DNA from: an uncultured Bacteroidales bacterium
GTDB taxonomy: Bacteria > Bacteroidota > Bacteroidia > Bacteroidales > UBA932
Assembly: GCA_905235535.1 (NCBI GenBank)
Contig: CAJOLS010000007.1
Span: 1-35,872, forward strand
Length of the DNA: 35,872 nt
Reading direction: 5' to 3'
Positions 209-12,286 of the stretch are shown in pieces. The notes under the pieces were generated by a model. The model saw nothing but the letters and a program-made list of their open reading frames with translations, was not told where the DNA came from and did no database searches. The stretch's first letter is position 1. Each line of letters begins with the position of its first letter. The position numbers and the translations under genes are program-made.

Positions 209-577
209 CTATCTTATTTCTTTGCCGAATGGGAATACGGAACTGAGGGCCATCTTGAAATGCTGCAGGCCCCAGGGAATTCCCACGATGGTGATACAGA
301 AGACAAGCCCGCACGCGAGGTGGATGAGGGCGATTTCCCACCAGCCAAGCAGGATCCAGATGAGATTCATCACCACCGACAGGCAGCCCGGCTCATTGGG
401 GCCGTTCACCAGTTCGTGGCCAAATGGCCAGAGGGCATAAGTGCCCAGTTTGAAAAGTTGTATGCCGAAGGGAATGCCGATGATGGTGATGCATATCAGC
501 AGGCCGACAATGTAGTATATCAGGGCGATAATGATGCCGCCCAGAATGAGCCAGATGATGTTTCCGAGGAATTTCAT
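209..577 (-). CDS. yccF: YccF family inner-membrane protein
   Basis: This is a 122-residue, very hydrophobic protein made of two copies of the YccF domain: roughly residues 3-52 and 65-115, each with a long membrane segment followed by an (I/V)GIP(F/W)G motif and a (W/F)PFG motif. That internal duplication is the hallmark of the family, whose biochemical role is unknown. The start is set at 577 because the ATG overlaps the TGA of the upstream gene (ATGA). A longer frame from 658 would lie within that gene. It is the middle gene of a tight minus-strand cluster. Family assignment is firm; function is not known. Confidence 0.85.
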   Translation of the reverse strand: MKFLGNIIWLILGGIIIALIYYIVGLLICITIIGIPFGIQLFKLGTYALWPFGHELVNGPNEPGCLSVVMNLIWILLGWWEIALIHLACGLVFCITIVGIPWGLQHFKMALSSVFPFGKEIR

Positions 578-1311
578 AGATTCACAGATAGTTCGTCTCT
601 CACGTATGTTTCCAGACATTTCTGCTTGTAGGCAAACCATTCCTGCCGATAAGGACAACTGTCAATGACCGCCTTGAAACGGGCAAAAGGATGGCTGCGG
701 GAAAGGGCCGATATGAGTTTGTTCCGGAGAGAGGATTCGCTCTCGGGCAGTTCGTCAACAAAGCCCTCCATGTACCTGAAAGACTCGAAAGATTCCGGCG
801 GGTTCAGCGTAATGCGCCGCTCCCACGAATCCACATGCTCCAGATTCTCGGTGTCCACTTCCGATTCTTCATAGTACGGCCAGGAGCCAGGATTCAGGAC
901 AAAGACGGTTTCATTGGTGTCCGGGTTCAAGTAGCAGATGTGACCACAGTCCAGCATTTCAGCTATCTCACGGACCGTTTCCTCCGGGATGACGGGCACG
1001 CTTGCCTCCAGATAGCGGACTTCTTTTCCGTTCTTCTTGGCATACTCAATTTCCGAGCGAGTGCTTTCACCGATATAGCCGCCAACGTTGAGCACGTAGA
1101 TGGCATCAGCCATGTCAATCTTGCGCTTATGCATGTCGTCCAGCATCTCCTTGGTGCCTTCCGTCCAAACCTCGTCGTCTCCGGAATGTCCAAAGAGACC
1201 GACGCTGATAACGATGTTGCCTTCGAGGGTGAGCCGCTTCTGCGCCTCAAGGAATTGTTCTTTAAAGCGTGTGCTGCCGCAGAGGGTTATTACAGGGTAT
1301 TTTCCTATCAT
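574..1311 (-). CDS. Nucleoside 2-deoxyribosyltransferase-like protein with UPF0158-like C-terminal domain
   Basis: A 245-residue protein. Residues 5-102 have a Rossmann-like nucleoside 2-deoxyribosyltransferase fold signature: ITLCGSTRF near 8-16, GDDEVW near 44-49, MADAIYVLNVGGYIGESTRSE near 67-87, and the strand EVRYLE near 97-102. Families of this type act on nucleosides or bind nucleotides, but many are uncharacterised. Residues about 120-240 resemble UPF0158 proteins (GxSWPYYEE..., MEGFVDEL, HPFARFKAVID, EWFAYK). The two domains are therefore fused. It is the first gene of a cluster with yccF. A -7 box, TACCTTTA at 1316-1323, ends only 4 nt before the ATG, which implies a leaderless mRNA. 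Substrate is unknown. Confidence 0.65.
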   Translation of the reverse strand: MIGKYPVITLCGSTRFKEQFLEAQKRLTLEGNIVISVGLFGHSGDDEVWTEGTKEMLDDMHKRKIDMADAIYVLNVGGYIGESTRSEIEYAKKNGKEVRYLEASVPVIPEETVREIAEMLDCGHICYLNPDTNETVFVLNPGSWPYYEESEVDTENLEHVDSWERRITLNPPESFESFRYMEGFVDELPESESSLRNKLISALSRSHPFARFKAVIDSCPYRQEWFAYKQKCLETYVRDELSVNL

Positions 1312-1315
1312 AATG

Positions 1316-1347
1316 TAAAGGTACGATTTTTTACGGAGACTTCACAA
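1316..1347 (-). promoter_or_regulatory. Bacteroidetes-type promoter of the deoxyribosyltransferase-like gene
   Basis: On the minus strand, TACCTTTA (1323-1316) resembles the TAnnTTTG -7 box. ATTG about 21 nt upstream is a weak -33 box. Transcription would begin at or next to the ATG at 1311. Confidence 0.45.
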
Positions 1348-1364
1348 TTTAATTACATAACGAT

Positions 1365-1973
1365 ATGATTATGATTTACGGATATATTCGCGTCAGCAGT
1401 GACAAACAGACTGTTGAAAATCAAAGGTTTGAAATCAATAATTTTTGCAGCAGAGAATCCATGACCATCGACGGGTGGATTGAGGAAACCATCAGCGGCA
1501 CCAAGAACTATAACAAGCGCCAGCTGGGGAAACTCCTCAATCGTGTACAAAAAGATGATCTTATCATTTGCGCAGAACTTTCCCGTTTGGGTAGAAATCT
1601 GTTCATGATTATGGAAATCCTGAATATCTGCATGACAAAGGAATGCCGGGTCTGGACCATCAAGGACAACTACCGACTTGGTGAAGATATCCAGAGCAAG
1701 GTTCTGGCCTTTGCTTTCGGGCTTTCTGCCGAGATCGAGCGCAACCTGATCAGTCAGCGGACGAAGGAGGCGCTTGCTAGAAAAAAGGCAGAGGGAATGG
1801 TCTTGGGGCGCCCAAAGGGTAGCAAGAACAAAAAGAAAAAACTGGATGGGAAAATGGACATAATTGACAGGCTATCAGATAAAGGTTTGCCTAAAACTTT
1901 GATAGCAAAAAAGTTAGGTGTCAGTAGAAACACGTTATACCTTTACCTTTCCCAGCAGTGCCGATGTGAATAA
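1365..1973 (+). CDS. Serine recombinase / DNA invertase (Mpi-like)
   Basis: A 202-residue small serine recombinase. The N-terminal catalytic domain begins YGYIRVSSDKQ with the nucleophilic Ser at about residue 11. It continues with LSRLGRNL, then GLSAEIERNLISQRTKEAL along the long E-helix and the arm motif GRPKG near 150. A C-terminal helix-turn-helix follows (LIAKKLGVSRNTLYLYL). Length and motifs fit Bacteroides Mpi-type invertases, which flip DNA between short inverted repeats. An ATG at 1371 (MIYGYIRVS) is an alternative start. Its stop at 1973 lies a few bases before the inverted RM specificity cassette, so the obvious substrate is the 29-bp inverted repeat at 2092-2120/2793-2821. Like Mpi it may also act on distant sites. 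Confidence 0.9.
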   Translation: MIMIYGYIRVSSDKQTVENQRFEINNFCSRESMTIDGWIEETISGTKNYNKRQLGKLLNRVQKDDLIICAELSRLGRNLFMIMEILNICMTKECRVWTIKDNYRLGEDIQSKVLAFAFGLSAEIERNLISQRTKEALARKKAEGMVLGRPKGSKNKKKKLDGKMDIIDRLSDKGLPKTLIAKKLGVSRNTLYLYLSQQCRCE

Positions 1974-1977
1974 TTAA

Positions 1978-2443
1978 CGCAGGTTTGATAATGACAAATG
2001 GTTTCAGTTTGGGCGCAATCAGGGAATGGGATATGCGAATGTGCCGAAACTTGTTGCACCGGAAATCTCTCTTGGGGGTAATTATTCAATCGATTCTGAC
2101 GGTCGTTATTATAGTACAACCACTGTTTACGGGTATGTGAAAAGAAAAGGCTTTGTTGGAAGCTACTATACTTGGATGGCTATACTGAACTTGGTGGTTC
2201 CTGGTTCAAACAGGAACAGTTTTGGCAAACGGATACTACAGGTTTAAGCCGGCCTACCTAAAGCCGTTTCCTGTACCTGATATTCCTCATGAATATGACA
2301 TTCAATTAACAGAATACGCCAAAAACTTGGTTGGAAATAGTAATGCCCTTGAATGCGAAAATATCATAAGTAATATAAACAAGCTTGTGTACGAGCTATA
2401 TAACCTAAGTGAAAGCGAAGTCAGAATCGTAGAGAACTGCTGA
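1978..2443 (+). pseudogene. Silent, inverted second copy of the type IIG RM target-recognition C-terminus (frameshifted)
   Basis: Read in frame from 1978 this strand gives RRFDNDKWFQFGRNQ, then PKLVAPEISLGGNYSIDSDG, then YYSTTTVYGYVKR. That is the canonical entry into a type IIG C-terminal specificity region and clearly homologous to the minus-strand copy at 2447-2896. There is no start codon or catalytic domain, so it is a promoterless cassette. Homology continues past 2190 but moves to another frame (ANGYYRFKPAYLKPFPVPDI, from about 2216), so a frameshift lies between 2190 and 2216. The cassette ends at 2443, 3 nt from the end of the opposing copy. Inversion at the 29-bp repeats would join its distal part in frame to the RM gene. 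Confidence 0.75.
2092..2120 (+). repeat. Left arm of perfect 29-bp inverted repeat (putative inversion site)
   Basis: This arm begins GATTCTGACGGTCG and ends TAGTACAAC, and encodes DSDGRYYST. It is the exact reverse complement of 2793-2821, while the flanking homologous coding sequence differs at many positions. That island of perfect identity is what repeated recombination at a site would leave. Confidence 0.75.
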
Positions 2444-2446
2444 TTT

Positions 2447-2950
2447 TCAATGAGAAGACGCGGAGGCAATCGCATCGTACTCTACATCGTATAAACGACA
2501 TACCAGTTCATCTATTATTCGCTGAATCTGTTCTGCCTCTATACCATTGGGCTTGCGCTCCAGCATCTCTTGAACGAGAGTTTCAATCCTTGAGACATAT
2601 TCTTTTGGTAAACAATTGAAATCAGGAAAAGGGAACGGAATCACATAGTTGGTCTTAAAGGTATAATATCCTCCACGCAATACATATCCCGTCTTTTGGA
2701 TGAAGAACCAAAACACTATAGAGTTCAAAACACCAAGTAAGAAAGGATAGCTGATGGGGATATCCGTTTTCTTAACATAACCATAGACTTTCGTTGTACT
2801 ATAATAACGACCGTCAGAATCAATTGTGAAGTTCCCTCCTAAAGATATTTCCGGGGCTACGATTTTAACTTGATCAAAAAGAGTTAGATTTATACCAAAA
2901 AATGTCTTTTTCCAACCTGCCTTTTTCGCGAGCACGTAATTCCGGCTCAC
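2447..2950 (-). CDS. C-terminal target-recognition part of the type IIG RM enzyme, out of frame with the main gene
   Basis: From about 2896 downwards this frame encodes GINLTLFDQVKIVAPEISL, then DSDGRYYSTTKVYGYVKK, then LNSIVFWFFIQKTGYVLRGG and YTFKTNYVIPFPFPDF. This is the typical C-terminal specificity segment of Eco57I/type IIG enzymes, followed by a helical tail ending at 2447. It overlaps the end of the main RM frame and is displaced by one frame. The first 18 codons (2950-2897) are only a frame-shifted reading of the RM gene, so the ATG at 2950 is probably not a real start. The intact enzyme would need one frame correction near 2896, where a run of six T lies. The 29-bp repeat sits inside it at 2793-2821. 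Confidence 0.7.
   Translation of the reverse strand: MSRNYVLAKKAGWKKTFFGINLTLFDQVKIVAPEISLGGNFTIDSDGRYYSTTKVYGYVKKTDIPISYPFLLGVLNSIVFWFFIQKTGYVLRGGYYTFKTNYVIPFPFPDFNCLPKEYVSRIETLVQEMLERKPNGIEAEQIQRIIDELVCRLYDVEYDAIASASSH
2793..2821 (-). repeat. Right arm of perfect 29-bp inverted repeat (putative inversion site)
   Basis: Exact reverse complement of 2092-2120, in the same protein position (DSDGRYYST) of the RM gene's own C-terminus. Inversion of 2092-2821 would exchange the two specificity tails while preserving reading frame across the repeat. Confidence 0.75.
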
Positions 2951-5900
2951 AAGCTTTCAGATAATCATAACCAGCTGGGAATAAGTCGCTAATCTCTTTC
3001 TCAGTGTATAGTAAAGCCTTATCGTCGACAAACTTGTATGGAAATAAAACATATCTGTCGCTGTCCAACGGCATATACCTATGAACATCCTCTCCTTTCA
3101 AAAGAGGCTTTACCAGTCCCTTTTCAATACTTACAGTACTGCCCAGATATTTGGAGTAGCCTTCAATCATTTGATTATCCAGTTCTCTGCACTCGTAGAG
3201 AAAATACACATCATCCTTGCTCGTCGCTAATCCCTGGAATATTGATTCAAAGACGTCTCCAAGTCTATAAGGATTCTTCCTCAGTTTCTCCATAATCGCA
3301 TTATCCTCCTTATTGACCAAAGTCCAGGGCGCATCAGTATTATACTCAACTTGTGCGAAATCAGACAATTGAAGGGAATTAAGGAATAAGCTGAAACCTT
3401 CTGTCGTTGTAATGCTGTTGTCCAGTTCAATATAGTGTAGCTTATCGGAAGAGCTGAACCATTGCAATCCAGTGTAGGTTGATGCATCAAAGACTTGGAA
3501 GGCCTTCAAGTTGATAATTCTTGACACGAACTTCTTTTTCGCCAAATATCCGCGTAGACCTTTCCCAAAATCGGAATTCGTCCACTTTACCGGCATTATG
3601 AAATGTACTAATCCGTCGCCCTTAATGAGTTGATGTGCCAATTCAACAAAGAGAACATAAATATCGAATGAGCCCGTTGCTGCTTGATAATGCTTGGAGT
3701 AGAACTCGACAGCCTCCGGATTAGAGTTCTGCAAACTCTGTATCCTCATATACGGCGGGTTGCCAATCACGCAGTCGAAGCCGACAAATCGGCCATCTTC
3801 ATCCAATACTTCCGGGAATTCGATGCGCCATTCAAATGCGCCGATGAAAATCTTATTATCCCGTATTTCGTCCACCTCAGCCTGTAATTTGGCTATCTTT
3901 GCCTGTAGATCCTTGGCCTGTTTGTCGCGCTGGGCCAGCTCCTTCTTGCTGATTTCGAAGAGTTGCGGTGCCAAAAGGTTGTCCAGTTCACCTTTCAGTT
4001 TATTAAGGCCAACCACCTTAGGGTCATTTAGACTAATCTGGGTTCGGAGATTACCCTTGATCTGCCGCAAGTATTCCTCCAGATCTCGTTTCTCCTCCTT
4101 GCTATGGGCGTTTTTATAGTCGCTCACTGCCTTGCGATAGGCGCTGATGGAGATCCTGTTCTTTAGGAGGATTTCTGAGATGTCTTGCCCTAAGTCGAAA
4201 CGGTGCAGAAGGGAGTTGCCCACCTTGATGTTGATGTCGATGTTCGGCAGAGTTTCCAGCTCTGTGTAGTCGCTTTCTTTTGTGTAATAGGCGTTTTTCA
4301 GCAGTTCTATCCACAGACGGAGCCGGCAGATGTTGACGGCATTGGGATTGAGGTCAACACCGAAGAGGCAGTTTTCGATGATTTTGCGTTTCTCGTTGAA
4401 GAGAGTTTCTTGGATGCGCTGGCTTTCCTGATTACCCGGGATGTAGCTGACTGGATTGCCGTCCTCGTCGGATACAAGGAGTTCATCGTTTTCTATATCA
4501 ATGCTGTAGTCCTGCTTCTTGATGCGCTTGCCGGAGCCGTCGATAAGAATGCCAAGATCGTATTTGGTACGGATAACCTCATTGAGGACGGATACCAGGA
4601 AGTGACCGGAACCCACAGCCGGGTCGCAGAATCGGAGAGAATCGACAATAGCATTGGCTTGGGCATAGTCCTCGATGTCTTTGTTTTTTAGGGTCTCGTA
4701 GTCTTTGCAAGACCAGCCCATCTCCTCATTGAAGCGGCGGACAACGGTCTGCCGGATGGCTTCACGACTCATATACATCGTAACGGCTCCTGGCGTGAAG
4801 ACAGAACCATCACGGTGGCCATTGATCTTCTCAAAGATAAGGCCCAGTACGGAGGCGTTAATGAGGGTCTTGGCTTGTTCCTGTACCTCCTCGGAACCTT
4901 CACTGGCGAAGTCATAGGCATCGAGGAATTCCAGAAGATAGCGGAGCGTCGGGAGTTTAGCGTAGCGCGGTTTCTGGCCGTCTTTGAGCACCGTACTGCT
5001 GAACAGAGGTAGTTCGCTATTATCAAGGCTACTAATCCGGATGGTTTGGCGCTCCAGGGGGCTAATCTCAAAGAGGGAGCTGTTGAGGTAAGGGACCTTG
5101 CCGTACTTAGAGTTGATGTTTTCAGGACGGTCAGCGGTACGCTTAGCAAGGACCTGGAAGAAGAGTTTATTGAGTTCGTCGTAATCCGGAATGATGGACG
5201 GACTCATAAAGGCATAAGATTTATCGCCTTTATGGTATTTTACAAGCTGGGCTTCAAGGAGTTTGAGGAAAAGAACCCGATTTATCCAACCGATGGTAAG
5301 CGCAAGAGCGACGCCGAAAAGCTGCTCTTGACGGTCTTTCCCAAAGGAAAAACGCTCTCTCACATTATCCAGCCAGTCTTCGCTGTCAAGAATGGTGATG
5401 GCGTTTTCCAGGATGGATGCCTGGTTACGATCTCCTTCTTTGCGGCGAGTAATGATGTGCTTGTTACTATCCTTCTCGACTACCTCCTCCAAGCCAATTA
5501 TGTAGAGCAGCTCGCTGTAAAACTTGGTGTTGAGGGAGTTGCTATCGTTCTGGAATCGCTTCTTTAGCAAATGCTCCGGGCTTAAAAACTTGAATAGCTC
5601 GATGAGCCGTTTGTCATTGCCGGTATCGAGAAAGGATTTATACTTCCGAATGTCAAACCAGGTATAGGTTATCTGGTCTATCACTTTCGCGATGAAGTCG
5701 GCAGCAATTTCCTTGTAGAAGAAGTCTGTCTTTTCTGATGTTAAGGCGCCATCATTGAATTCTTCGAAACGTTTGATGAGTTTTCTGTTAGAATAGAAAA
5801 GGCGCTCAAACTCCTGGGCGTCGAAGACGAAATACTCATAGACATTGGTGACTACGAGCTGTTTGAGCTGGATGTTTTTCTTGGAATGGCGTTCGCGAAG

Positions 5901-6257
5901 GTAGTAAAGAAGCAGTTCCTGCAATGCTTTTCGGTTGAGGTCTTCCCGCGTAATCATTTCAGATACGTTTCCAGGCATCTTGACTTCAAAGACGACACCG
6001 ACAGGATCTTGAATGTTGTTTCCAAGGTGGATGGCACAGTCAATCTTGCCATTCGGAGAAACCTTGTATGTCTGGCCGTAGAAAGTCAATTTGAGAAGGT
6101 CCATCAAATCGCCCTTAACCTTTTCTTCGGTGTTGATGACTGCAATCTGTTCGTAGAAGTTATGCAGCTGTGTTTTGAACGCATCAAACGCGGCACGGTC
6201 CACGGGGACCTGGCGATATGCCTTATTCAAGGACTTGGCGATATTGAGTTCTGCCAT
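2874..6257 (-). CDS. Type IIG restriction-modification enzyme (Eco57I-like), nuclease and methyltransferase parts
   Basis: An 1127-residue polypeptide that cleaves and N6-adenine-methylates DNA in one chain. The N-terminus holds a PD-(D/E)XK-like nuclease signature: KIDCAIHL with D73 and FEVKMP with E91 and K93. A helical linker follows. The methyltransferase has motif I, DPAVGSGHF from D545, and motif IV, NPPY from N833. A coiled region (KELAQRDKQAKDLQAKIAKL) lies between them. The frame stops at 2874 after DIFWYKSNSF, just where the C-terminal specificity region should begin. That region continues in another frame at 2447-2896, so the gene is interrupted by a frameshift. A -7 box (TAAATTTG, 6289-6282) precedes the ATG. 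The adjacent invertase and inverted second cassette suggest phase-variable specificity. Confidence 0.88.
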   Translation of the reverse strand: MAELNIAKSLNKAYRQVPVDRAAFDAFKTQLHNFYEQIAVINTEEKVKGDLMDLLKLTFYGQTYKVSPNGKIDCAIHLGNNIQDPVGVVFEVKMPGNVSEMITREDLNRKALQELLLYYLRERHSKKNIQLKQLVVTNVYEYFVFDAQEFERLFYSNRKLIKRFEEFNDGALTSEKTDFFYKEIAADFIAKVIDQITYTWFDIRKYKSFLDTGNDKRLIELFKFLSPEHLLKKRFQNDSNSLNTKFYSELLYIIGLEEVVEKDSNKHIITRRKEGDRNQASILENAITILDSEDWLDNVRERFSFGKDRQEQLFGVALALTIGWINRVLFLKLLEAQLVKYHKGDKSYAFMSPSIIPDYDELNKLFFQVLAKRTADRPENINSKYGKVPYLNSSLFEISPLERQTIRISSLDNSELPLFSSTVLKDGQKPRYAKLPTLRYLLEFLDAYDFASEGSEEVQEQAKTLINASVLGLIFEKINGHRDGSVFTPGAVTMYMSREAIRQTVVRRFNEEMGWSCKDYETLKNKDIEDYAQANAIVDSLRFCDPAVGSGHFLVSVLNEVIRTKYDLGILIDGSGKRIKKQDYSIDIENDELLVSDEDGNPVSYIPGNQESQRIQETLFNEKRKIIENCLFGVDLNPNAVNICRLRLWIELLKNAYYTKESDYTELETLPNIDINIKVGNSLLHRFDLGQDISEILLKNRISISAYRKAVSDYKNAHSKEEKRDLEEYLRQIKGNLRTQISLNDPKVVGLNKLKGELDNLLAPQLFEISKKELAQRDKQAKDLQAKIAKLQAEVDEIRDNKIFIGAFEWRIEFPEVLDEDGRFVGFDCVIGNPPYMRIQSLQNSNPEAVEFYSKHYQAATGSFDIYVLFVELAHQLIKGDGLVHFIMPVKWTNSDFGKGLRGYLAKKKFVSRIINLKAFQVFDASTYTGLQWFSSSDKLHYIELDNSITTTEGFSLFLNSLQLSDFAQVEYNTDAPWTLVNKEDNAIMEKLRKNPYRLGDVFESIFQGLATSKDDVYFLYECRELDNQMIEGYSKYLGSTVSIEKGLVKPLLKGEDVHRYMPLDSDRYVLFPYKFVDDKALLYTEKEISDLFPAGYDYLKACEPELRAREKGRLEKDIFWYKSNSF

Positions 6258-6281
6258 AATAATTCACGGAGGATTAATAGA

Positions 6282-6289
6282 CAAATTTA
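6282..6289 (-). promoter_or_regulatory. -7 box of the type IIG RM gene
   Basis: TAAATTTG on the minus strand matches TAnnTTTG and lies 24 nt before the ATG at 6257. I do not see a convincing -33 box. Confidence 0.4.
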
Positions 6290-6446
6290 GTGTTTTTTCA
6301 GCGAAACCATAATAAAAAATGTGCACGATGTAACTCTTTCTGATTCTGAACTATCAGGAGCAGACGATGAGATTATGATTGTTCATATTTTTAACCGTCT
6401 TATTTATTTGTTTACAGTTGATTAACAGGTTAATTTGTATTATTTG

Positions 6447-6454
6447 TATCTTTG
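6447..6454 (+). promoter_or_regulatory. -7 box of the abiE operon
   Basis: TATCTTTG matches TAnnTTTG and ends 4 nt before the ATG at 6459, so the mRNA would be leaderless or nearly so. The -33 box is not clear. Confidence 0.5.
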
Positions 6455-6458
6455 CGTC

Positions 6459-7088
6459 ATGAAGGCGAAGAATCATATAGAGAATGAGTACGCTGCAGGG
6501 TGTGCCAGGGTAAGCGGCGGATGCGTCGCTTATCATGGAGCACTTCAGTACTATGCACTCCAGACACAACAGTTCAACACCATCTACCTGCATTCGGACA
6601 AACGTTTCCGTCCGTTTGTCATTGATGGCGTAGCATACGAGTATCATCCCCTCAAGTTTACCTACAACGTCGTTATCAGCAAAGATCAGGACGGGAATCC
6701 CATTGCGGTAACATCCCTGTCGCAGACCATAGTGGACTGCATTCGTCACATTGACCTTGCAGGAGGGTTGGAAGAACTGCTCTACGCGCTTTCCTCCATT
6801 TCCTATGGCAGGCTAAGCGAAAAGGACATGCTCGTCTGCCTGGAGGCCTACGATAATGCTTCGCTTTGGAGCCGGACGGGATATCTTCTTTCCCTTTTTC
6901 AAAGCAGCATTGGTGTGGACGATAAGTTTCTGAATACCTGCCGCATCAAGGGAAGCGGCGTGAAGAATAAACTCACTGACGGAGACAAGGCTCTGGAGTT
7001 TGTCCCCAGGTGGAATTTATTCGTTCCAAAGGATATGGGTAATATGATAGCTAAAGGAACCGAATATGGAGCAGAAGTCATATACTAA
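6459..7088 (+). CDS. abiEi: AbiEi-like antitoxin of a type IV toxin-antitoxin system
   Basis: A 209-residue protein resembling AbiEi antitoxins. An N-terminal segment has a SGGCVAYHGALQYYAL motif like the family's (S)xxSALxxHGL helix. A beta-rich stretch follows, then SLSQTIVDCIRHIDLAGGLEELLYAL (AbiEi core) and a C-terminal helical domain. In characterised AbiE systems the antitoxin represses its own promoter and counters the nucleotidyltransferase toxin without a stable complex. An upstream in-frame ATG at 6435 lies before the promoter box, so the ATG at 6459 is preferred. It overlaps the next gene by 23 nt, as expected for the pair. The usual N-terminal winged helix seems short. Confidence 0.7.
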   Translation: MKAKNHIENEYAAGCARVSGGCVAYHGALQYYALQTQQFNTIYLHSDKRFRPFVIDGVAYEYHPLKFTYNVVISKDQDGNPIAVTSLSQTIVDCIRHIDLAGGLEELLYALSSISYGRLSEKDMLVCLEAYDNASLWSRTGYLLSLFQSSIGVDDKFLNTCRIKGSGVKNKLTDGDKALEFVPRWNLFVPKDMGNMIAKGTEYGAEVIY

Positions 7089-7683
7089 GAAAAAACTCCG
7101 CGTGCTGATGGAATCCACCGGATACCCAATGGCATCCATCGAGAAAACCATGCGCCTGCTGGATCTCCTGCGGGTCATTAATGAGGACGCCTTTCTTTCA
7201 GAGAACCTGACGCTGAAAGGAGAAACGGCCATCAACATCATTCACTACAGCGAAATTCCCAGGTTGAGCGTTGATCCGGACTTCGACCTTGCCAGGAATA
7301 CACCAAAGGAAGAAATGCTTGCCGTCAAGGATGAAGTATCGACAAAAATCCGTGACCTTGCTGCATCTATGGGGTACTTCTTAAGCGACCCACGCCCCAA
7401 TTATACCATCCACCAGACCGAGTTGTATTATCAAAGCGCCACTGGTAATCGGGATAAAATCAAGCTGGATATCAATTGGCTTTCCCGCTGCCATGTCTAT
7501 GAGACGGTAATCCGGGAAGCGTGCAATCCTTTTATTCCTTCCGAGAAACTCTCTGTCCGTATGCTCTCCGAATATGAGTTGTTCGGAGCAAAGTTCAAGG
7601 CTCTGCTGGAACGGAATACGCCACGTGATATCTTCGGCGCCTATACAATGCAGCAGAAAGGGTTATACAGTCAATCGGAATAA
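7066..7683 (+). CDS. abiEii: AbiEii-like nucleotidyltransferase toxin, probably C-terminally truncated
   Basis: A 205-residue nucleotidyl transferase of the AbiEii family, which in studied systems modifies tRNA or other targets to stop growth during phage infection. Visible signatures are LTLKGETAINI near 48-58 (the family's GG[TS] loop, with E in place of the second G), RLSVDPDFDL near 66-75 carrying the metal-binding D-x-D, and KLDINW near 136-141. The RDIFGAY motif near 185 normally sits well before the C-terminus. Family members are usually about 250-300 residues, so some 60-90 residues appear to be missing. The stop falls where a repeat-rich non-coding stretch begins. The altered loop and short length suggest a decaying or inactive toxin. 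Confidence 0.65.
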   Translation: MEQKSYTKKKLRVLMESTGYPMASIEKTMRLLDLLRVINEDAFLSENLTLKGETAINIIHYSEIPRLSVDPDFDLARNTPKEEMLAVKDEVSTKIRDLAASMGYFLSDPRPNYTIHQTELYYQSATGNRDKIKLDINWLSRCHVYETVIREACNPFIPSEKLSVRMLSEYELFGAKFKALLERNTPRDIFGAYTMQQKGLYSQSE

Positions 7684-7726
7684 CGTCCCAGGTCCAGGAA
7701 AGTAGTATCCCCGGTCTGCATTTTTG

Positions 7727-7834
7727 TCAGGGGCCAGCGACGGCAGAGCGCACACAACGGCGAAAGCCGTCCCCGGTCACCCAGGTATTTGCGGACCAGC
7801 GACGGAACCGTCAGGGACCAGCGACGGCAGAACG
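7727..7834 (+). repeat. Three direct copies of a GGACCAGCGACGG motif
   Basis: A 24-nt unit at 7727-7750 recurs at 7811-7834 with 22 of 24 matches. A 13-nt partial copy lies at 7793-7805, 22 nt before the same core in the last copy. The interval 7684-8187 has no gene I can support; besides these repeats it holds the MITE-like element at 7876-7987. Confidence 0.6.
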
Positions 7835-7875
7835 GATTTTCCTTCAAAGCTGCCGCTTCTTCGTTGTGGCATTTA

Positions 7876-7987
7876 GAGTCTGTTTTGAAATGATTGATAT
7901 TTTTATTCATAGTTTTGTGGAAATTTTTGAGGAAAATTTACCAAAAAGAAACATAAAGAATTTATTGAATCATTTCAAAACAGACTC
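7876..7987. mobile_element. MITE-like element, 112 bp, with 20-bp terminal inverted repeats
   Basis: The left end GAGTCTGTTTTGAAATGATT (7876-7895) is the reverse complement of the right end (7968-7987). Both sides are flanked by TTA (7873-7875 and 7988-7990), consistent with a 3-bp target duplication. The interior is AT-rich and has no transposase. GAG-starting ends and a T-N-A triplet target fit IS5-family (IS1031-group) elements, so a related transposase elsewhere in the genome could mobilise it. That family link is inferred from memory of end types. Confidence 0.6.
7931..7987 (-). repeat. 57-bp inverted repeat, left copy, bracketing the DUF4143 ATPase gene
   Basis: The reverse complement of this segment matches 9423-9479 at 56 of 57 positions and then diverges. 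It is the right half of the MITE-like element. The two copies enclose the ATPase gene in inverted orientation. Confidence 0.75.
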
Positions 7988-8156
7988 TTAAACAGAACCC
8001 AAACAAATGCTTTTACTTACGGACAGATGCGCTGGCCAATGCCGAGGCCTGTGCGGCAACAGCCATCAAGATTCCATAAGTCACGGGTAAGCCAGAAGAA
8101 TTTTATCAGTTATATCTTATATCTTAGGAAATTCAATTATTCGATAAATTTCTTGG

Positions 8157-8183
8157 TTATATAAGAGAATTTCTTTAGATTTG
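8157..8183 (+). promoter_or_regulatory. Promoter of the ATPase gene, leaderless geometry
   Basis: TAGATTTG at 8176-8183 matches TAnnTTTG, with a weak -33 (TTGG) about 19 nt upstream. The box ends 4 nt before the ATG at 8188, so transcription should start at the start codon. Confidence 0.5.
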
Positions 8184-8187
8184 CGCT

Positions 8188-9393
8188 ATGGAAATACTGC
8201 AAAGACCAGAGTACCTTGCGCAGGTACGGCACTACTTAGGGAAAGAAACCATCATTGTCCTTACCGGACAGCGGCGCGTCGGGAAGAGTTACGTCCTGAT
8301 GTCCCTGAGGGACCTGCTCTCAGCATCGGACGGCAATAACGTCATCTACATCAATAAAGAGAAGAAGGAGTGGGACGATATTGTCACCTACAAAGACCTG
8401 AACCAATACATCGGGGAGAAATACGTTCCGGACAAACGGAATTACATCCTGATCGATGAAGTCCAGGAAATCAGGGAGTTTGAAAAGAGTGTCCGTCACT
8501 GGAGGACGGAACCAAACACGGACCTGGTTCTCACCGGCAGCAATGCCGAGACGCTTTCCAGCGACTTGTCCACACTGCTGGCGGCCCGGTATCACGAAGT
8601 TTACATCCAGGCCCTTACGTATAAGGATTTCATCCGCTTCCATAAGTTGGAAGAGGGAGACGATGCCTTGTCATTATTCATCAACGCCGGAGGCCTGCCG
8701 GGGCTTGTCAAGTATGACATCCACGATGAAAACGAGGTGTATTCTTACGCCCAGGACGTCCTGAACACGGCCCTTGTGAAGGACATCATCCTCAAACACA
8801 AAATCAGGAATGTGCCGTTCCTGTACAACCTGGTCCGATTTCTTGCAGACAGTGCGGGCAAGCCGGTATCGGCCACCAGCATTTCCAACTACATGAAGGG
8901 GCAGAAGAGTCCGGTGTCCATCGAACTGGTCCTGAAATACCTGAAATACCTTTGCGACGCATACATCGTAACTGAGATTCCTCGTTTCGATATCCGCGGA
9001 AAGAAGCTTCTGCAGACAAATGGCAAGTATTACTTCGAGGATACCGGCATCCGGAATTCCTGCGTGGAAACCAACCGGGACAAGGACATTGAGAAAGTCA
9101 TCGAGAACATCATCTACCACCAGCTCATCCACGACGGATACAAAGTTAACGTGGGGCAGCTGGTAGCCGGCGAAGTGGATTTCGTTTGCGTCAAAGACAA
9201 GAAGCGCGTGTATATCCAGGCTTCCTACATCATCGGAAACGATGAAACCCGCCGGCGGGAATTTGGAACGCTCAAAGCCATCGCCGACAATTATCCCAAA
9301 TACGTCATCTCCATGACACCCCTGGTTACGAGGACAGACGACGAAGGAATCCAGCACCTAAGCCTGCGCGAATTTTTGAAAAACGGGCTGTAG
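8188..9393 (+). CDS. AAA family ATPase with DUF4143 domain
   Basis: A 401-residue protein of the AAA_14/DUF4143 family. The Walker A motif is GQRRVGKS at 27-34 and the Walker B is YILIDEVQE with D90 and E91. A sensor-like LVLTGSNAE follows near 114-122. The C-terminal part (about 190-370) has the DUF4143 pattern: a winged-helix-like SISNYMKGQKSPVS, then a nuclease-like fold with GEVDFVC. This family is abundant in Bacteroidales, often as solitary genes near mobile elements, and its role is unknown. The gene stands alone between inverted 57-bp MITE-end copies, which suggests it arrived or moved with them. Confidence 0.88.
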   Translation: MEILQRPEYLAQVRHYLGKETIIVLTGQRRVGKSYVLMSLRDLLSASDGNNVIYINKEKKEWDDIVTYKDLNQYIGEKYVPDKRNYILIDEVQEIREFEKSVRHWRTEPNTDLVLTGSNAETLSSDLSTLLAARYHEVYIQALTYKDFIRFHKLEEGDDALSLFINAGGLPGLVKYDIHDENEVYSYAQDVLNTALVKDIILKHKIRNVPFLYNLVRFLADSAGKPVSATSISNYMKGQKSPVSIELVLKYLKYLCDAYIVTEIPRFDIRGKKLLQTNGKYYFEDTGIRNSCVETNRDKDIEKVIENIIYHQLIHDGYKVNVGQLVAGEVDFVCVKDKKRVYIQASYIIGNDETRRREFGTLKAIADNYPKYVISMTPLVTRTDDEGIQHLSLREFLKNGL

Positions 9394-9422
9394 TACATGG
9401 AAACATGGTTCCGGAATATTTA

Positions 9423-9479
9423 GAGTCTGTTTTGAAATGATTCAATAAATTCTTTCTGTTTCTTTTTGGTAAATTTTCC
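9423..9479 (+). repeat. 57-bp inverted repeat, right copy (MITE half)
   Basis: Begins GAGTCTGTTTTGAAATGATT and matches the reverse complement of 7931-7987 with one mismatch. It too is preceded by TTA (9420-9422). No matching second end follows, so this is a solo half-element. It stops about 9 nt before the trp -33 box. Confidence 0.7.
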
Positions 9480-9487
9480 AAAATAAA

Positions 9488-9520
9488 TTTGTACTTTTAA
9501 AAATATTTTATTTACCTTTG
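9488..9520 (+). promoter_or_regulatory. trp operon promoter
   Basis: TTTG at 9488-9491 and TACCTTTG at 9513-9520 are separated by 21 nt, an excellent Bacteroidetes promoter match. The start would fall near 9525, about 20 nt before the leader peptide. Confidence 0.75.
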
Positions 9521-9545
9521 CGAGGACCAAAAAGTACAAGAAGAA

Positions 9546-9599
9546 ATGAAGACCGGTTTTGCATGGTGGTGGCGCAACTCAAGGATTTATAATTCGTGA
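9546..9599 (+). CDS. trpL: trp operon leader peptide
   Basis: A 17-codon frame, MKTGFAWWWRNSRIYNS, with three consecutive Trp codons at 9564-9572. It lies between the trp promoter and an intrinsic terminator that precedes trpB. This arrangement is the signature of transcription attenuation: ribosome stalling at the Trp codons when charged tRNA-Trp is scarce would favour readthrough. I could not identify a clear antiterminator stem pairing with the 5' arm of the terminator, so the exact switching structure remains open. It is too short for routine gene callers. Confidence 0.8.
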   Translation: MKTGFAWWWRNSRIYNS

Positions 9600-9639
9600 G
9601 ACGCTGCAGCCGTGTAAACCAATCAACTTACCATAGAAG

Positions 9640-9669
9640 GCCTGTCGTAATCACGACAGGCTTTTTTTT
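9640..9669 (+). terminator. trp attenuator (intrinsic terminator)
   Basis: A perfect 9-bp stem, GCCTGTCGT (9640-9648) with ACGACAGGC (9653-9661), loop AATC, followed by eight T (9662-9669). It sits immediately upstream of trpB and downstream of the Trp-codon leader. Confidence 0.88.
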
Positions 9670-9696
9670 ATGCTGAAAACAAGTAAAAACACAGAT

Positions 9697-10899
9697 ATGA
9701 ACTACCAAGTGGATGAAAACGGATTTTATGGAGAGTTTGGAGGAGCCTACATCCCCGAAATTCTCTACAAATGCGTGGATGAGCTGAAAAACGCCTATCG
9801 GCCCATTGTGGAAAGCGAGGAATTCCAGAAAGAATTCCGCCAGCTGCTGCGGGACTATGCCGGAAGGCCCTCTCCCCTTTACTATGCACAACGGATGAGC
9901 CGCAAATACGGCTGCCGCCTGTTCCTCAAGCGCGAAGACTGCAACCACACCGGCGCTCACAAGATTAACAACGCCATCGGCCAAATCCTGCTGGCCCGAA
10001 GGATGGGCAAGACGCGCGTGATTGCCGAAACCGGAGCCGGACAGCACGGCGTTGCAACGGCCACCGTCTGCGCCCTCATGGGCATGCAGTGCGAGATTTT
10101 CATGGGGAAGACCGACGTGGAGCGCCAGCACACCAATGTGGAGCGGATGCGCATGCTGGGAGCCACGGTTCATCCGGTCACCACCGGCAACATGACCCTG
10201 AGCGACGCCTGCTCGGCCGCCATCCGGGACTGGTGCTGCCATCCCTCCGACACCTATTACCTGGTGGGTTCCACCATGGGCCCGCACCCCTATCCGGACC
10301 TGGTGGCCAGGCTCCAGAGCGTCATTTCCGAGGAAATCAAAAGCCAGCTGCAGGAGCAGGCGGGCCGGGATTATCCGGACTACCTGGTGGCCTGCATAGG
10401 CGGCGGCAGCAACGCGGCGGGAACCATCTACCATTATATGGACGATGAACGGGTGAAGATTGTCCTGGCCGAAGCCGGGGGCCACGGCGTGGATTCCGGC
10501 TATACCGCCGCCACCATCCACCGCGGACGCACCGGCATCCTGCACGGCTCCAAGATGCTGGTGATGCAGACTCCCGACGGCCAGATTGAAGAGGCCTTCT
10601 CCCTATCGGCCGGCCTGGATTATCCGGGCGTGGGGCCGATGCACTGCAACATGGCCGCGAAGGGACGCACGAAGGTGCTGGCCATCAACGATGACGAGGC
10701 CATCTACGCCGGATACGAACTCACGCGCCTGGAAGGCATCATCCCCGCCATCGAAAGCGCCCATGCGATGGCGGCGCTGGGAAAAATGAGCTTCCGCCCC
10801 GAAGACATCGTGGTCCTCACCGTGAGCGGACGCGGGGACAAGGATGTGGAAACTTATCTCAAGAACAAAGAATACGCAAAAGAATATGGCCAGTTTTAA
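9697..10899 (+). CDS. trpB: Tryptophan synthase beta subunit
   Basis: A 400-residue PLP enzyme that condenses indole with serine in the last step of tryptophan synthesis, acting with TrpA. The PLP lysine is K89 in HTGAHKINN. ETGAGQHG supplies the catalytic Glu, and GGGSNAAGT binds the PLP phosphate. Full length for the family. The ATG at 9697 (MNYQVDENGFYGEFGG) is chosen because homologues begin there. An in-frame ATG at 9670 abuts the terminator T-run and would add nine atypical residues. It is the first gene of the operon, as is usual in Bacteroidetes, and its end overlaps trpE by 14 nt. It is controlled by the attenuator just upstream. Confidence 0.96.
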   Translation: MNYQVDENGFYGEFGGAYIPEILYKCVDELKNAYRPIVESEEFQKEFRQLLRDYAGRPSPLYYAQRMSRKYGCRLFLKREDCNHTGAHKINNAIGQILLARRMGKTRVIAETGAGQHGVATATVCALMGMQCEIFMGKTDVERQHTNVERMRMLGATVHPVTTGNMTLSDACSAAIRDWCCHPSDTYYLVGSTMGPHPYPDLVARLQSVISEEIKSQLQEQAGRDYPDYLVACIGGGSNAAGTIYHYMDDERVKIVLAEAGGHGVDSGYTAATIHRGRTGILHGSKMLVMQTPDGQIEEAFSLSAGLDYPGVGPMHCNMAAKGRTKVLAINDDEAIYAGYELTRLEGIIPAIESAHAMAALGKMSFRPEDIVVLTVSGRGDKDVETYLKNKEYAKEYGQF

Positions 10900-12286
10900 C
10901 TATACCACGGTGGCCCACAAGCGCCTGGCCGACCTTTATACCCCCGTATCCGTCTATATGAGGCTGCGGGACTTGTATCCCCAGTCGGCCCTGATGGAGT
11001 CCAGCGACTACCACGGCGGCGAAAACGCCCGCTCCTTCATTGGGATAGACCCTGTTGGCAGCGTTTCCGTAGAACACGGCGTGGCGGTTCAAAGCTATCC
11101 CGACGGAAACAAGGTGAGAAAGCCTCTCACGCGGGATTTTCCGGCCGATAAAGCCGTCAACGAATTCATCCACAGCTTTAACGTGCAGGGCGAATACAGC
11201 CATCTGTGCGGCCTGTACGGCTACATGACCTTCAACGCCGTCCGCTACCTGGAGAACATTCCCGTCAAGGACGAGACCCAGGCCCGCAACGACGCCCCGG
11301 ACATCCTGTACATCCTGTACAAGTACATCATCATGTTCGACCACTTCAACAACACCCTGGTGCTGGTGGAACTGCTCAGAGACGGGGAGCAGAGCGGCCT
11401 GCCCAGGATTGAGCAGGAGATGAACCGCACCGACGTGAACCCCTACGGCTTCCATCCCGTGGGAGAAACCACGTCCACGCTCACGGACGAGGAGCACAAG
11501 GCCAACATACGAAGGGGCATTGCGCACTGCCTGCGGGGAGACGTCTTCCAGATTGTCCTTTCCCGCCGCTTTGTCCAGAAATATGAGGGGGACGATTTCA
11601 AGCTGTACCGCGCCCTTCGCAGCATCAACCCCAGCCCATACCTGTTCTATTTTGACTTCGGCGGCTTCCGCATCTTCGGGTCCTCGCCCGAGACGCACTG
11701 CCGCATAGAAGGCCGGAGGGCCTATATAGACCCCATCGCCGGCACCACCCAACGCACCGGAAACCGAGAGGAGGACGCCCGCGGGGCCGAATTCCTGAGA
11801 AACGACCCCAAGGAGAATGCCGAGCACGTGATGCTGGTGGACCTGGCCCGCAACGACCTCAGCCGCAACTGCCACGACGTAAAAGTGGACTTTTACAAGG
11901 ACCTCCAGTACTACAGCCACGTCATCCACCTGGTCTCCCGCGTGAGCGGTGAACTGGACCAGGGGGCAGACCCGGTGAAAGCCTTCATGGACACCTTCCC
12001 GGCCGGGACCCTCAGCGGCGCCCCCAAGGTGCGTGCCATGCAGCTTATCAGCGAGTACGAGCCCCACAACAGGGGTGCGTACGGCGGCTGCATAGGCTAT
12101 ATCGGCCTCAACGGCAGCCTGAACCAGGCCATTACCATCCGCACCTTCGTGAGCCGCAACGACGAGCTGTGGTTCCAGGCCGGCGGCGGCATCGTGGCCC
12201 GCAGCAACGAAGAATATGAGCTGCAGGAAGTGAACAATAAACTGAACGCCCTGCGAAGGGCCATCCTCATAGCAGAAGAAATGTGA
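10886..12286 (+). CDS. trpE: Anthranilate synthase component I
   Basis: A 466-residue chorismate-utilising enzyme that makes anthranilate with ammonia supplied by TrpG. The N-terminal domain carries LMESS at 36-40, equivalent to the LLES motif that binds feedback tryptophan. The catalytic C-terminal domain has GDVFQIVLSRRF, PIAGTTQRTG, HVMLVDLARNDL and FPAGTLSGAPKVRAM. The start at 10886 lies inside the trpB end (14-nt overlap) and gives the usual N-terminus; a start at 10844 would overlap more with no support. Its TGA is joined to the trpG ATG (TGATG). Confidence 0.96.
   Translation: MASFNYTTVAHKRLADLYTPVSVYMRLRDLYPQSALMESSDYHGGENARSFIGIDPVGSVSVEHGVAVQSYPDGNKVRKPLTRDFPADKAVNEFIHSFNVQGEYSHLCGLYGYMTFNAVRYLENIPVKDETQARNDAPDILYILYKYIIMFDHFNNTLVLVELLRDGEQSGLPRIEQEMNRTDVNPYGFHPVGETTSTLTDEEHKANIRRGIAHCLRGDVFQIVLSRRFVQKYEGDDFKLYRALRSINPSPYLFYFDFGGFRIFGSSPETHCRIEGRRAYIDPIAGTTQRTGNREEDARGAEFLRNDPKENAEHVMLVDLARNDLSRNCHDVKVDFYKDLQYYSHVIHLVSRVSGELDQGADPVKAFMDTFPAGTLSGAPKVRAMQLISEYEPHNRGAYGGCIGYIGLNGSLNQAITIRTFVSRNDELWFQAGGGIVARSNEEYELQEVNNKLNALRRAILIAEEM

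What the first reader, a model, noticed from the sequence alone, without database searches (positions are those of the whole stretch)
1365..6257. Invertible specificity switch of a type IIG restriction-modification enzyme, with its own serine invertase
Seen: the RM gene's C-terminal recognition region (minus) and a promoterless homologous copy (plus) lie tail to tail, 3 nt apart. Each contains the same 29 bp at the same protein position as a perfect inverted repeat, while flanking homologous sequence has diverged. A serine invertase gene ends 5 nt before the silent copy. Known: Mpi-type invertases flip DNA between short inverted repeats, and inverting hsdS genes are common for type I systems. 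Inferred: inversion of 2092-2821 swaps the distal recognition half of a single-chain type IIG enzyme, changing both methylation and cleavage specificity. Type IIG examples driven by a dedicated invertase seem much rarer than type I ones; novelty needs a literature search.
Basis: partly seen in the sequence, partly recalled or inferred. Interest (0 to 1): 0.85.

Follow-up and report, generated by a model that had tools for sequence, protein, structure and literature searches.

The report
Four-state switch of restriction-enzyme specificity
In this Bacteroidales genome a gene for a predicted DNA-cutting and DNA-marking (type IIG) enzyme lies beside an inverted spare of its target-reading end and a gene for a DNA-flipping enzyme; near-identical relatives carry the same end pieces in swapped combinations, so the cell would likely flip DNA to change the enzyme's target or switch it off.

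Summary
The anatomy is real: Mpi-family invertase (1365-1973), inverted second copy of the enzyme's recognition C-terminus (1979-2443), type IIG gene (2447-6257), and a perfect 29-bp inverted repeat beyond chance (0 of 2000 synonymous recodings). Both cassettes carry frame-shifting deletions (17 and 11 nt against a same-genus relative), so the proposed flip of 2092-2821 alone changes no protein. And there is a second, outer exchange point (GCAGGTT, 1979 / 2914-2921). Relatives show the exchange: a metagenomic protein with G038's core (1110/1113 residues) carries exactly G038's silent cassette (163/163); in a group of 22 near-identical cores the outer and inner pieces occur in three of four combinations. 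Simulating both inversions on the window, only the doubly inverted state gives a full-length frame (1274 aa). Inverting type I hsdS genes are well known, and inversions in type II systems were, as I recall, reported in 2023; nested, segment-wise exchange within one chain's recognition domain beside a dedicated Mpi-family invertase is a new variant. Inversion by this invertase, and switching in the window's strain, are untested.

The parts
1365..1973 (+). Mpi-family serine DNA invertase (202 aa): Resolvase catalytic domain plus helix-turn-helix
   Evidence: Pfam PF00239 3e-33 and HTH_7; NCBIfam NF009949 340 bits, cutoff 272
1979..2443 (+). Silent recognition-domain cassette (pieces F then T): no in-frame start codon, begins at the outer exchange site; an 11-nt deletion after 2189 shifts its frame
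   Evidence: orthologue of G038's ACTIVE cassette (72.3% DNA identity against 61.9% to G038's silent one)
1979..1996 (+). Outer exchange site, silent side (GCAGGTTTGATAATGACA), 5 nt after the invertase stop
   Evidence: exchange at this point separates G038 and P0001
2903..2921 (-). Outer exchange site, active side (GGCAGGTTGGAAAAAGACA); 15 of 18 positions match the silent side
2092..2120 (+). Inner exchange site, silent side: perfect 29-bp inverted repeat (codes DSDGRYYST)
   Evidence: exchange at this position in relatives; cassette boundary in G524
2793..2821 (-). Inner exchange site, active side: the other arm of the 29-bp repeat
2874..6257 (-). Type IIG RM gene as it reads now (1127 aa): DUF7149 with D73...E91-x-K93, DUF7814, Eco57I-type methyltransferase; frame ends early after a 17-nt deletion (2891/2892)
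2447..2950 (-). ORF with the out-of-frame remainder of the active recognition cassette (pieces L then K), TaqI_C specificity domain

Best explanation
[quoted passage not shown] in near-identical relatives these C-terminal pieces occur exchanged at two nested points, most likely through DNA inversion by the invertase. The predicted switch has four states. The outer exchange (GCAGGTT, at the end of the invertase gene and at codon ~1114 of the enzyme) swaps the whole cassette. The inner exchange (29-bp repeat, codon ~1155) swaps only the last ~115 residues. Together they combine two alleles of a ~40-residue piece (L, F) with two alleles of the C-terminal piece (K, T) on one constant nuclease-methyltransferase core. 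Shown: the anatomy, the swapped arrangements in relatives, and the reading frame of each simulated state. Inferred: that this invertase does the inverting, that each combination has its own DNA target, and that both cutting and methylation follow it. In the window as sequenced the enzyme would be truncated (off or altered); simulated inner inversion leaves 1127 aa, outer 1201 aa, both together 1274 aa, the length of natural F-K enzymes.
For: (1) Same-genus genome G038 has invertase, intact silent cassette and intact RM gene in the same order, with the cassettes swapped relative to the window. (2) Metagenomic protein P0001: identical to G038 at 1110 of 1113 residues up to the outer point, then identical to G038's silent cassette at 163 of 163. 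(3) Group of 22 proteins linked by core identity of at least 98.5%: 2 L-T, 7 F-K, 9 L-K, 4 truncated or odd. (4) In 375 same-core pairs with differing C-termini (of 558 pairs; 139 proteins) transitions pile up at aa ~970, 1035-1065, 1115-1120, 1130-1135 and 1155-1165, and also at ~890 (50 transitions, 3 groups). (5) In G524, another genus, a silent cassette begins exactly at the inner site with a 25-bp inverted repeat, and a serine invertase gene starts ~45 nt beyond it. (7) In 20 of those 31, recognition-domain sequence starts within 700 nt 3' of the invertase. (8) The only one of four simulated states with a full-length frame is F-K.
Against: Neither cassette of the window is intact. No protein of the window's own species in another state was found: best core identity to the window is 91% among P0001-P0120, and the best overall identity in the list is 89%. 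No reads were available. The outer repeat is short and imperfect. The fourth combination (F-T) was not seen in the group of 22, though G038 has it. The inner repeat of the window looks (by eye, GRNCGWWW) like repeats beside invertases whose helix-turn-helix differs from the window's, so a second recombinase or homologous recombination may act there. 7 of the 31 clade invertases have at least 500 nt after them and no recognition-domain match within 700 nt. The tail-to-tail cassette pairs of G465 have no invertase match beside them, and G524's invertase scores just under the Mpi cutoff (268 against 272). The predicted nuclease fold has no significant PDB match (best E 0.056, BpuSI).
Confidence: 0.75

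Rival explanations
1. One reading: a two-state switch by inversion of 2092-2821 alone, which swaps the distal recognition half in this strain.
For: Perfect 29-bp repeat beyond chance; exchange at that position in relatives.
Against: That inversion leaves the window's protein unchanged (1127 aa). G038/P0001 and window/G038 differ by whole-cassette exchange at the outer point.
Confidence: 0.07
2. The mosaic C-termini come from ordinary homologous recombination and gene transfer among strains; the invertase is a bystander or serves other sites.
For: Several groups have three or more alleles per segment, more than one two-cassette locus can supply; 7 of 31 clade invertases with enough sequence after them lack a recognition-domain match there.
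Against: P0001's cassette is identical to the silent cassette of G038's own locus (163/163); cassette ends coincide with the invertase's end and with exact repeats of 19 bp and more in the type-A loci and 25 bp in G524; contigs break on the 3' side of the invertase more than on the 5' side.
Confidence: 0.13
3. In this strain the locus is a decaying remnant: both cassettes are broken and the switch no longer matters, whatever it does in relatives. (Not exclusive of the best explanation, which speaks of the family of loci.)
For: Two frame-shifting deletions, one per cassette; truncated or odd members occur elsewhere (4 of 22 in the window-like group).
Against: Core (1127 codons) and invertase are open; the two intact pieces (F, K) can be joined by two simulated inversions into a 1274-aa frame of a natural type.
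Confidence: 0.35

Closest known systems
Phase-variable type I RM systems with inverting hsdS genes (e.g. Streptococcus pneumoniae, PMC4948785, PMC4190663; survey PMC7394358; seen in search listings)
   Same: Alternative specificity genes beside an active one; DNA inversion changes target specificity
   Different: There the specificity is a separate HsdS subunit; here it is the C-terminus of one chain that also carries nuclease and methyltransferase, and exchange points lie inside the recognition domain. The recombinases named for those systems are tyrosine recombinases (recalled)
Gene-altering programmed inversions in type II RM systems (Milman, Yelin, Kishony, NAR 2023; text not held, title seen in a reference list, content recalled)
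   Same: As I recall, predicted and long-read-validated inversions that alter type II RM genes
   Different: I recall no report there of nested outer and inner sites, of segment-wise combinations, or of this Mpi-family clade; I could not read the paper to check
DOMO, domain movement in H. pylori type I and type IIG S genes (PMC3077401, passages read)
   Same: Recombination at repeats reshuffles recognition domains, also in a type IIG system
   Different: There TRDs move between positions in a separate S subunit, recombination machinery unknown; here alternative pieces are exchanged at the same position with an inverted silent cassette beside an invertase gene
Mpi of Bacteroides fragilis (passages in PMC5903667 and PMC4747536)
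   Same: Same serine-recombinase family (NF009949)
   Different: Mpi inverts 13 scattered regions, seven of them capsule promoters; here most clade members examined sit beside a recognition-domain coding sequence (20 of 31)
Phase-variable type IIG enzyme of Campylobacter jejuni (PMC4889913, search listing)
   Same: Phase-variable type IIG enzyme
   Different: Reported as stochastic switching of expression, by a repeat tract as I recall; no cassette exchange

Membership tests
Type IIG restriction-modification enzyme | One chain with methyltransferase and C-terminal specificity domain | tested here: met
   Eco57I methylase and TaqI_C in the intact relative G038; PADLOC REase_MTase_IIG 773 bits over residues 6-1270. 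In the window TaqI_C is split off by a frameshift
Type IIG restriction-modification enzyme | N-terminal nuclease domain | tested here: inconclusive
   D73, E91 and K93 invariant in 42 sequences, a PD-(D/E)XK-like pattern; predicted fold (pLDDT 87.5) has only weak PDB matches, BpuSI and NucC first
Type IIG restriction-modification enzyme | Cleavage at a fixed distance from the recognition sequence | not testable with these tools
   needs biochemistry
Mpi-family serine invertase | Sequence family with catalytic domain and helix-turn-helix | tested here: met
   NF009949 340 bits, cutoff 272; PF00239 and HTH_7
Mpi-family serine invertase | Master regulator that inverts many distant promoters | not tested
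   the window's genome (82% complete) has one match at E <= 1e-60; other sites were not searched
Inverting type I hsdS system | Separate HsdS subunit with HsdM and HsdR | tested here: not met
   single-chain gene; no hsdM or hsdR among the neighbouring ORFs scanned
BREX (PglX) | PglX above curated cutoff, with the other brx genes | tested here: not met
   BREX_1_MTaseX 62 bits against a cutoff of 500; neighbours scanned are AbiE genes, an ATPase and housekeeping genes
Two-site (four-state) exchangeable cassette | Both exchange points used in nature | tested here: met
   L-T, F-K and L-K on near-identical cores; F-T and L-K on the G038 core; sequences come from different samples
Two-site (four-state) exchangeable cassette | Inversion observed in one clonal population and dependent on the invertase | not testable with these tools
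   no reads, no cultures

The most novel reading that the evidence does not exclude
A recognition-domain shuffler: Mpi-family invertases, each parked beside its own site, cut the single recognition domain of type IIG enzymes into two to four exchangeable pieces and recombine them by nested inversions, so that one locus encodes four or more targets and, as in this window, also states that are off. It would be combinatorial diversification inside one protein domain, with part of the state space used as silence.
Probability: 0.55. Interest if true: 0.78.

Novelty: new variant of a known kind. Interest (0 to 1): 0.62.

Why it matters
If each state has its own target, one gene gives a clonal population several restriction and methylation specificities, useful against phages and able to reset genome-wide methylation. 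Exchange inside one recognition domain also gives natural chimeras that would show which piece reads which bases, a hard problem for engineering type IIG specificity. The window adds a direct test: one of four reachable states would restore a full-length enzyme.

Tried and rejected
The 29-bp repeat as the only exchange point: rejected after comparison with G038 and P0001. Protein conservation alone as the reason for the 29-bp identity: rejected (0 of 2000). BREX membership: rejected by score. A common DNA motif (GRNCGWWW) in the inner and junction repeats: seen by eye after the fact, not tested statistically, kept only as a lead; the Mpi site consensus was not found in the passages read. In my notes I first placed the DEFSKPKI repeat of the type-A loci at the DGRYYST position; the breakpoint map showed two places. 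I first counted G221 among loci with a cassette after the invertase and G288 among those without; a tblastn check corrected both. Structure model of residues 501-1271 was of modest quality (pLDDT 71.7) and was used only to name the nearest folds. Literature: search listings (20 of 32 papers shown; 3 of 3; none found; 16 of 16; 10 of 10; 20 of 59; 15 of 22; 3 of 3) showed no title or abstract start on inversion inside a single-chain type IIG recognition domain by a serine invertase; the library lacks the papers most likely to cover it, so this is no proof of absence. Passages of PMC5608340, PMC10333322, PMC11868660 and PMC3874165 described no such system either.
Full report
What is in the sequence. 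With the active copy's codons redrawn synonymously from the RM gene's own usage, 0 of 2000 trials reach 29 bp (max 28, mean 10.3).

The RM gene is broken: ORF 2874-6257 ends at '...EKDIFWYKSNSF*' and the rest of the recognition domain lies in another frame (2447-2950, Pfam TaqI_C). Against the orthologue in G038, the active copy lacks 17 nt at 2891/2892 and the silent copy 11 nt after 2189. Neither length is a multiple of three and neither is a one-base slip; an assembly error cannot be excluded without reads. As the frame stops before the 29-bp repeat, flipping 2092-2821 alone would not change the protein.

A second arrangement in the genus. Genome G038 (contig of the same length and 100% match: CADAIT010000003.1, MAG RUG13332) has the invertase (86% identical), an intact silent cassette and an intact RM gene. 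Its active cassette is the orthologue of the window's silent one (72.3% DNA identity) and its silent cassette of the window's active one (70.4%), against 61.9-62.7% for the other pairing and 63.3-64.4% between the two copies within a genome. The exchanged unit starts at GCAGGTT, 5 nt after the window's invertase stop (1979) and at 2914-2921 in the RM gene, outside the 29-bp repeat.

Exchange seen in databases. A search with the G038 enzyme (the best 120 listed of 7999 significant among 8000 scored) returned P0001: identical to G038 at 1110 of 1113 residues up to the outer point, then identical to G038's silent cassette at 163 of 163. A search with the window's own ORF (best 120 listed) found no other sequence of the window's species: best overall identity 89%. 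Among the 138 proteins listed by the two searches plus G038, 15 groups of at least two are linked by core identity of at least 98.5%. In the window-like group of 22, two alleles of the ~40-residue piece between outer and inner points (L, F) combine with two alleles of the C-terminal piece (K, T): L-T 2, F-K 7, L-K 9, plus 4 truncated or odd. G038 is F-T and P0001 is L-K. So both points are used in nature. In two other groups, with larger cassettes, 11 labels (9 complete) occur among 19 proteins and 11 among 15; some segments there have three or more alleles, so sources beyond one locus contribute. Over 375 pairs with equal cores and unequal ends, transitions pile up at aa ~970, 1035-1065, 1115-1120, 1130-1135 and 1155-1165; a further heap at ~890 (50 transitions, 3 groups) lies near the start of the stretch examined and was not followed. 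The sequences come from different samples, so cells of one clone are not shown.

The architecture in relatives. Invertase, inverted silent cassette and tail-to-tail IIG gene also occur in G306 (L050), G201 (L051), G431 (L058) and Reindeer_1_mag_206 (L079), and beside more distant IIG genes in G457 (L061), G320 (L156), G301 (L164), G090 (L067) and G335 (L070), the last two with several cassettes that start at the NPPY motif. In the first seven an exact junction repeat (19 to 279 bp, starting GAGCG) lies at or a few bases after the invertase stop and at the matching place in the RM gene; L067 and L070 showed no inverted repeat of 13 bp or more in the stretch examined; 6 of these 9 loci have one or more further inverted repeats of at least 17 bp inside the domain. 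The helix-turn-helix at the end of the invertase differs along with the sequence after its stop: CKVDRNTL mostly with GAGCGWTT...; LKVHRCTLYRYL, LYRYLAYTGIR, and SRNTLYL(Y/F)LS (window, G038) with other sequences (read by eye; the two LYRYLAYTGIR loci have no recognition-domain match). In G524, another genus, the silent cassette starts exactly at the inner (DGRYYST) position with a 25-bp repeat, and a serine invertase gene (52% identical; 268 bits to the Mpi model, just under the cutoff of 272) starts ~45 nt beyond; G465 has tail-to-tail pairs starting at the same motif, without an invertase match in the stretch fetched. So the inner site is a cassette boundary in its own right. Of 398 family genomes searched with the G038 silent cassette, 3 matched at E <= 1e-25, the window's own included.

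Traces in assemblies. 78 of 400 same-genus genomes have an invertase match at E <= 1e-60. Of the best 32 matches 31 have a known contig length (G404:C6 was dropped because its contig length was not fetched). 7 of 31 contigs end within 150 nt on the 3' side (one of them, G382, inside the gene) and 1 on the 5' side, with 0.23 expected per side; within 700 nt 11 and 2, expected 1.08. Three (G047, G236, G005) end within the GAGCG... motif itself. In 20 of 31 recognition-domain sequence starts within 700 nt 3' of the invertase (three short stretches cut by contig ends and a 135-nt remnant in G288 included); in 4 the contig ends within 40 nt; in 7 there is none (G454, G374, G221, G426, G182, G383, G396). 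6 of 16 distinct RM contigs examined end 102-153 nt past aa 926, at or just past the corresponding LSDYVQT motif (L048/L076, L052/L082, L053, L054/L084, L081, L111). Mixed arrangements in a sample would give this pattern; repeats alone could contribute.

The enzyme. The intact relative matches PADLOC's type IIG model over its whole length (773 bits). Nearest solved structures by sequence are M.BseCI and M.TaqI, by fold of residues 501-1271 CamA, M.BseCI with DNA, BrxX/PglX and BpuSI. D73, E91 and K93 in DUF7149 are invariant in 42 sequences, as expected of a PD-(D/E)XK nuclease; fold search gave only weak matches, the first being the type IIG enzyme BpuSI (E 0.056). Cleavage is therefore predicted.

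The window's four states. Inversions simulated on the window DNA without changing a base give: as sequenced 1127 aa; inner 1127; outer 1201; inner plus outer 1274 aa, the same in either order. The last is an F-K enzyme of the length of natural F-K enzymes (P0005-P0012, 1274 aa). Either the locus is decaying, or it is at present off and one state in four would bring the enzyme back.

Comparison with the known. Inverting hsdS genes of type I systems are well known (PMC4948785, PMC4190663, PMC7394358; listings). Domain movement in a type IIG S subunit is known in H. pylori without a known recombinase (PMC3077401, passages). A survey of invertons in a gut community names restriction subunit S genes together with tyrosine recombinases (PMC11892184, passages). 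Type II RM genes as targets of programmed inversions were, as I recall, reported by Milman et al. 2023, which I could not read. I therefore file this as a new variant of a known kind.

Noticed in passing
window 6435-7088 and 7066-7683 (+): AbiEi / AbiEii toxin-antitoxin pair (PADLOC 189 and 182 bits) beside the RM locus: a small defence cluster.
   Followed up: partly
window 7872-7895 / 7968-7991: 24-nt inverted repeat, 96% complementary, 72 nt apart, between AbiEii and an AAA_14/DUF4143 ATPase gene (8188-9393): might be an invertible promoter or a hairpin.
   Followed up: no
L150 (G374) 443-3781 (-), invertase ORF 4060-4707 (+), 4852-8403 (+): An invertase of the same clade lies between two divergent genes of ~1100 and ~1180 aa whose proteins share a nearly identical start (MLKRFILVALACLIGVQVFAQ / MFKRFILVALACLIGVQVFAQ); SusC-like by length and start (not scanned): perhaps a surface-receptor switch.
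   Followed up: no
L067 (G090) and L070 (G335): Several IIG recognition cassettes in both orientations, the full ones starting at the GFDIVIGNPPY motif, next to an invertase with a different helix-turn-helix: a possible multi-cassette shufflon that swaps everything from methyltransferase motif IV on.
   Followed up: partly
L156 (G320) 4567-7887 and 7884-11174 (-): The IIG-type gene with the inverted spare cassette overlaps a gene for an SNF2-type helicase (PADLOC HKD+Snf2 / DrmD): perhaps a two-gene defence operon with an invertible recognition domain.
   Followed up: no
L111 (Bacteroides nordii WAL 11050 = JCM 12987, contig 75): RM contig ends at the junction motif (...FSIDKL), 102 bases past the core, as in the uncultured relatives: a cultured species in which switching could be tested.
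   Followed up: no
P0024, P0026, P0030: Proteins that run normally to DGRYY, DGHYY or DGH and then end within 9-19 unrelated residues: perhaps off-states made by exchange with another partner, or decay.
   Followed up: no
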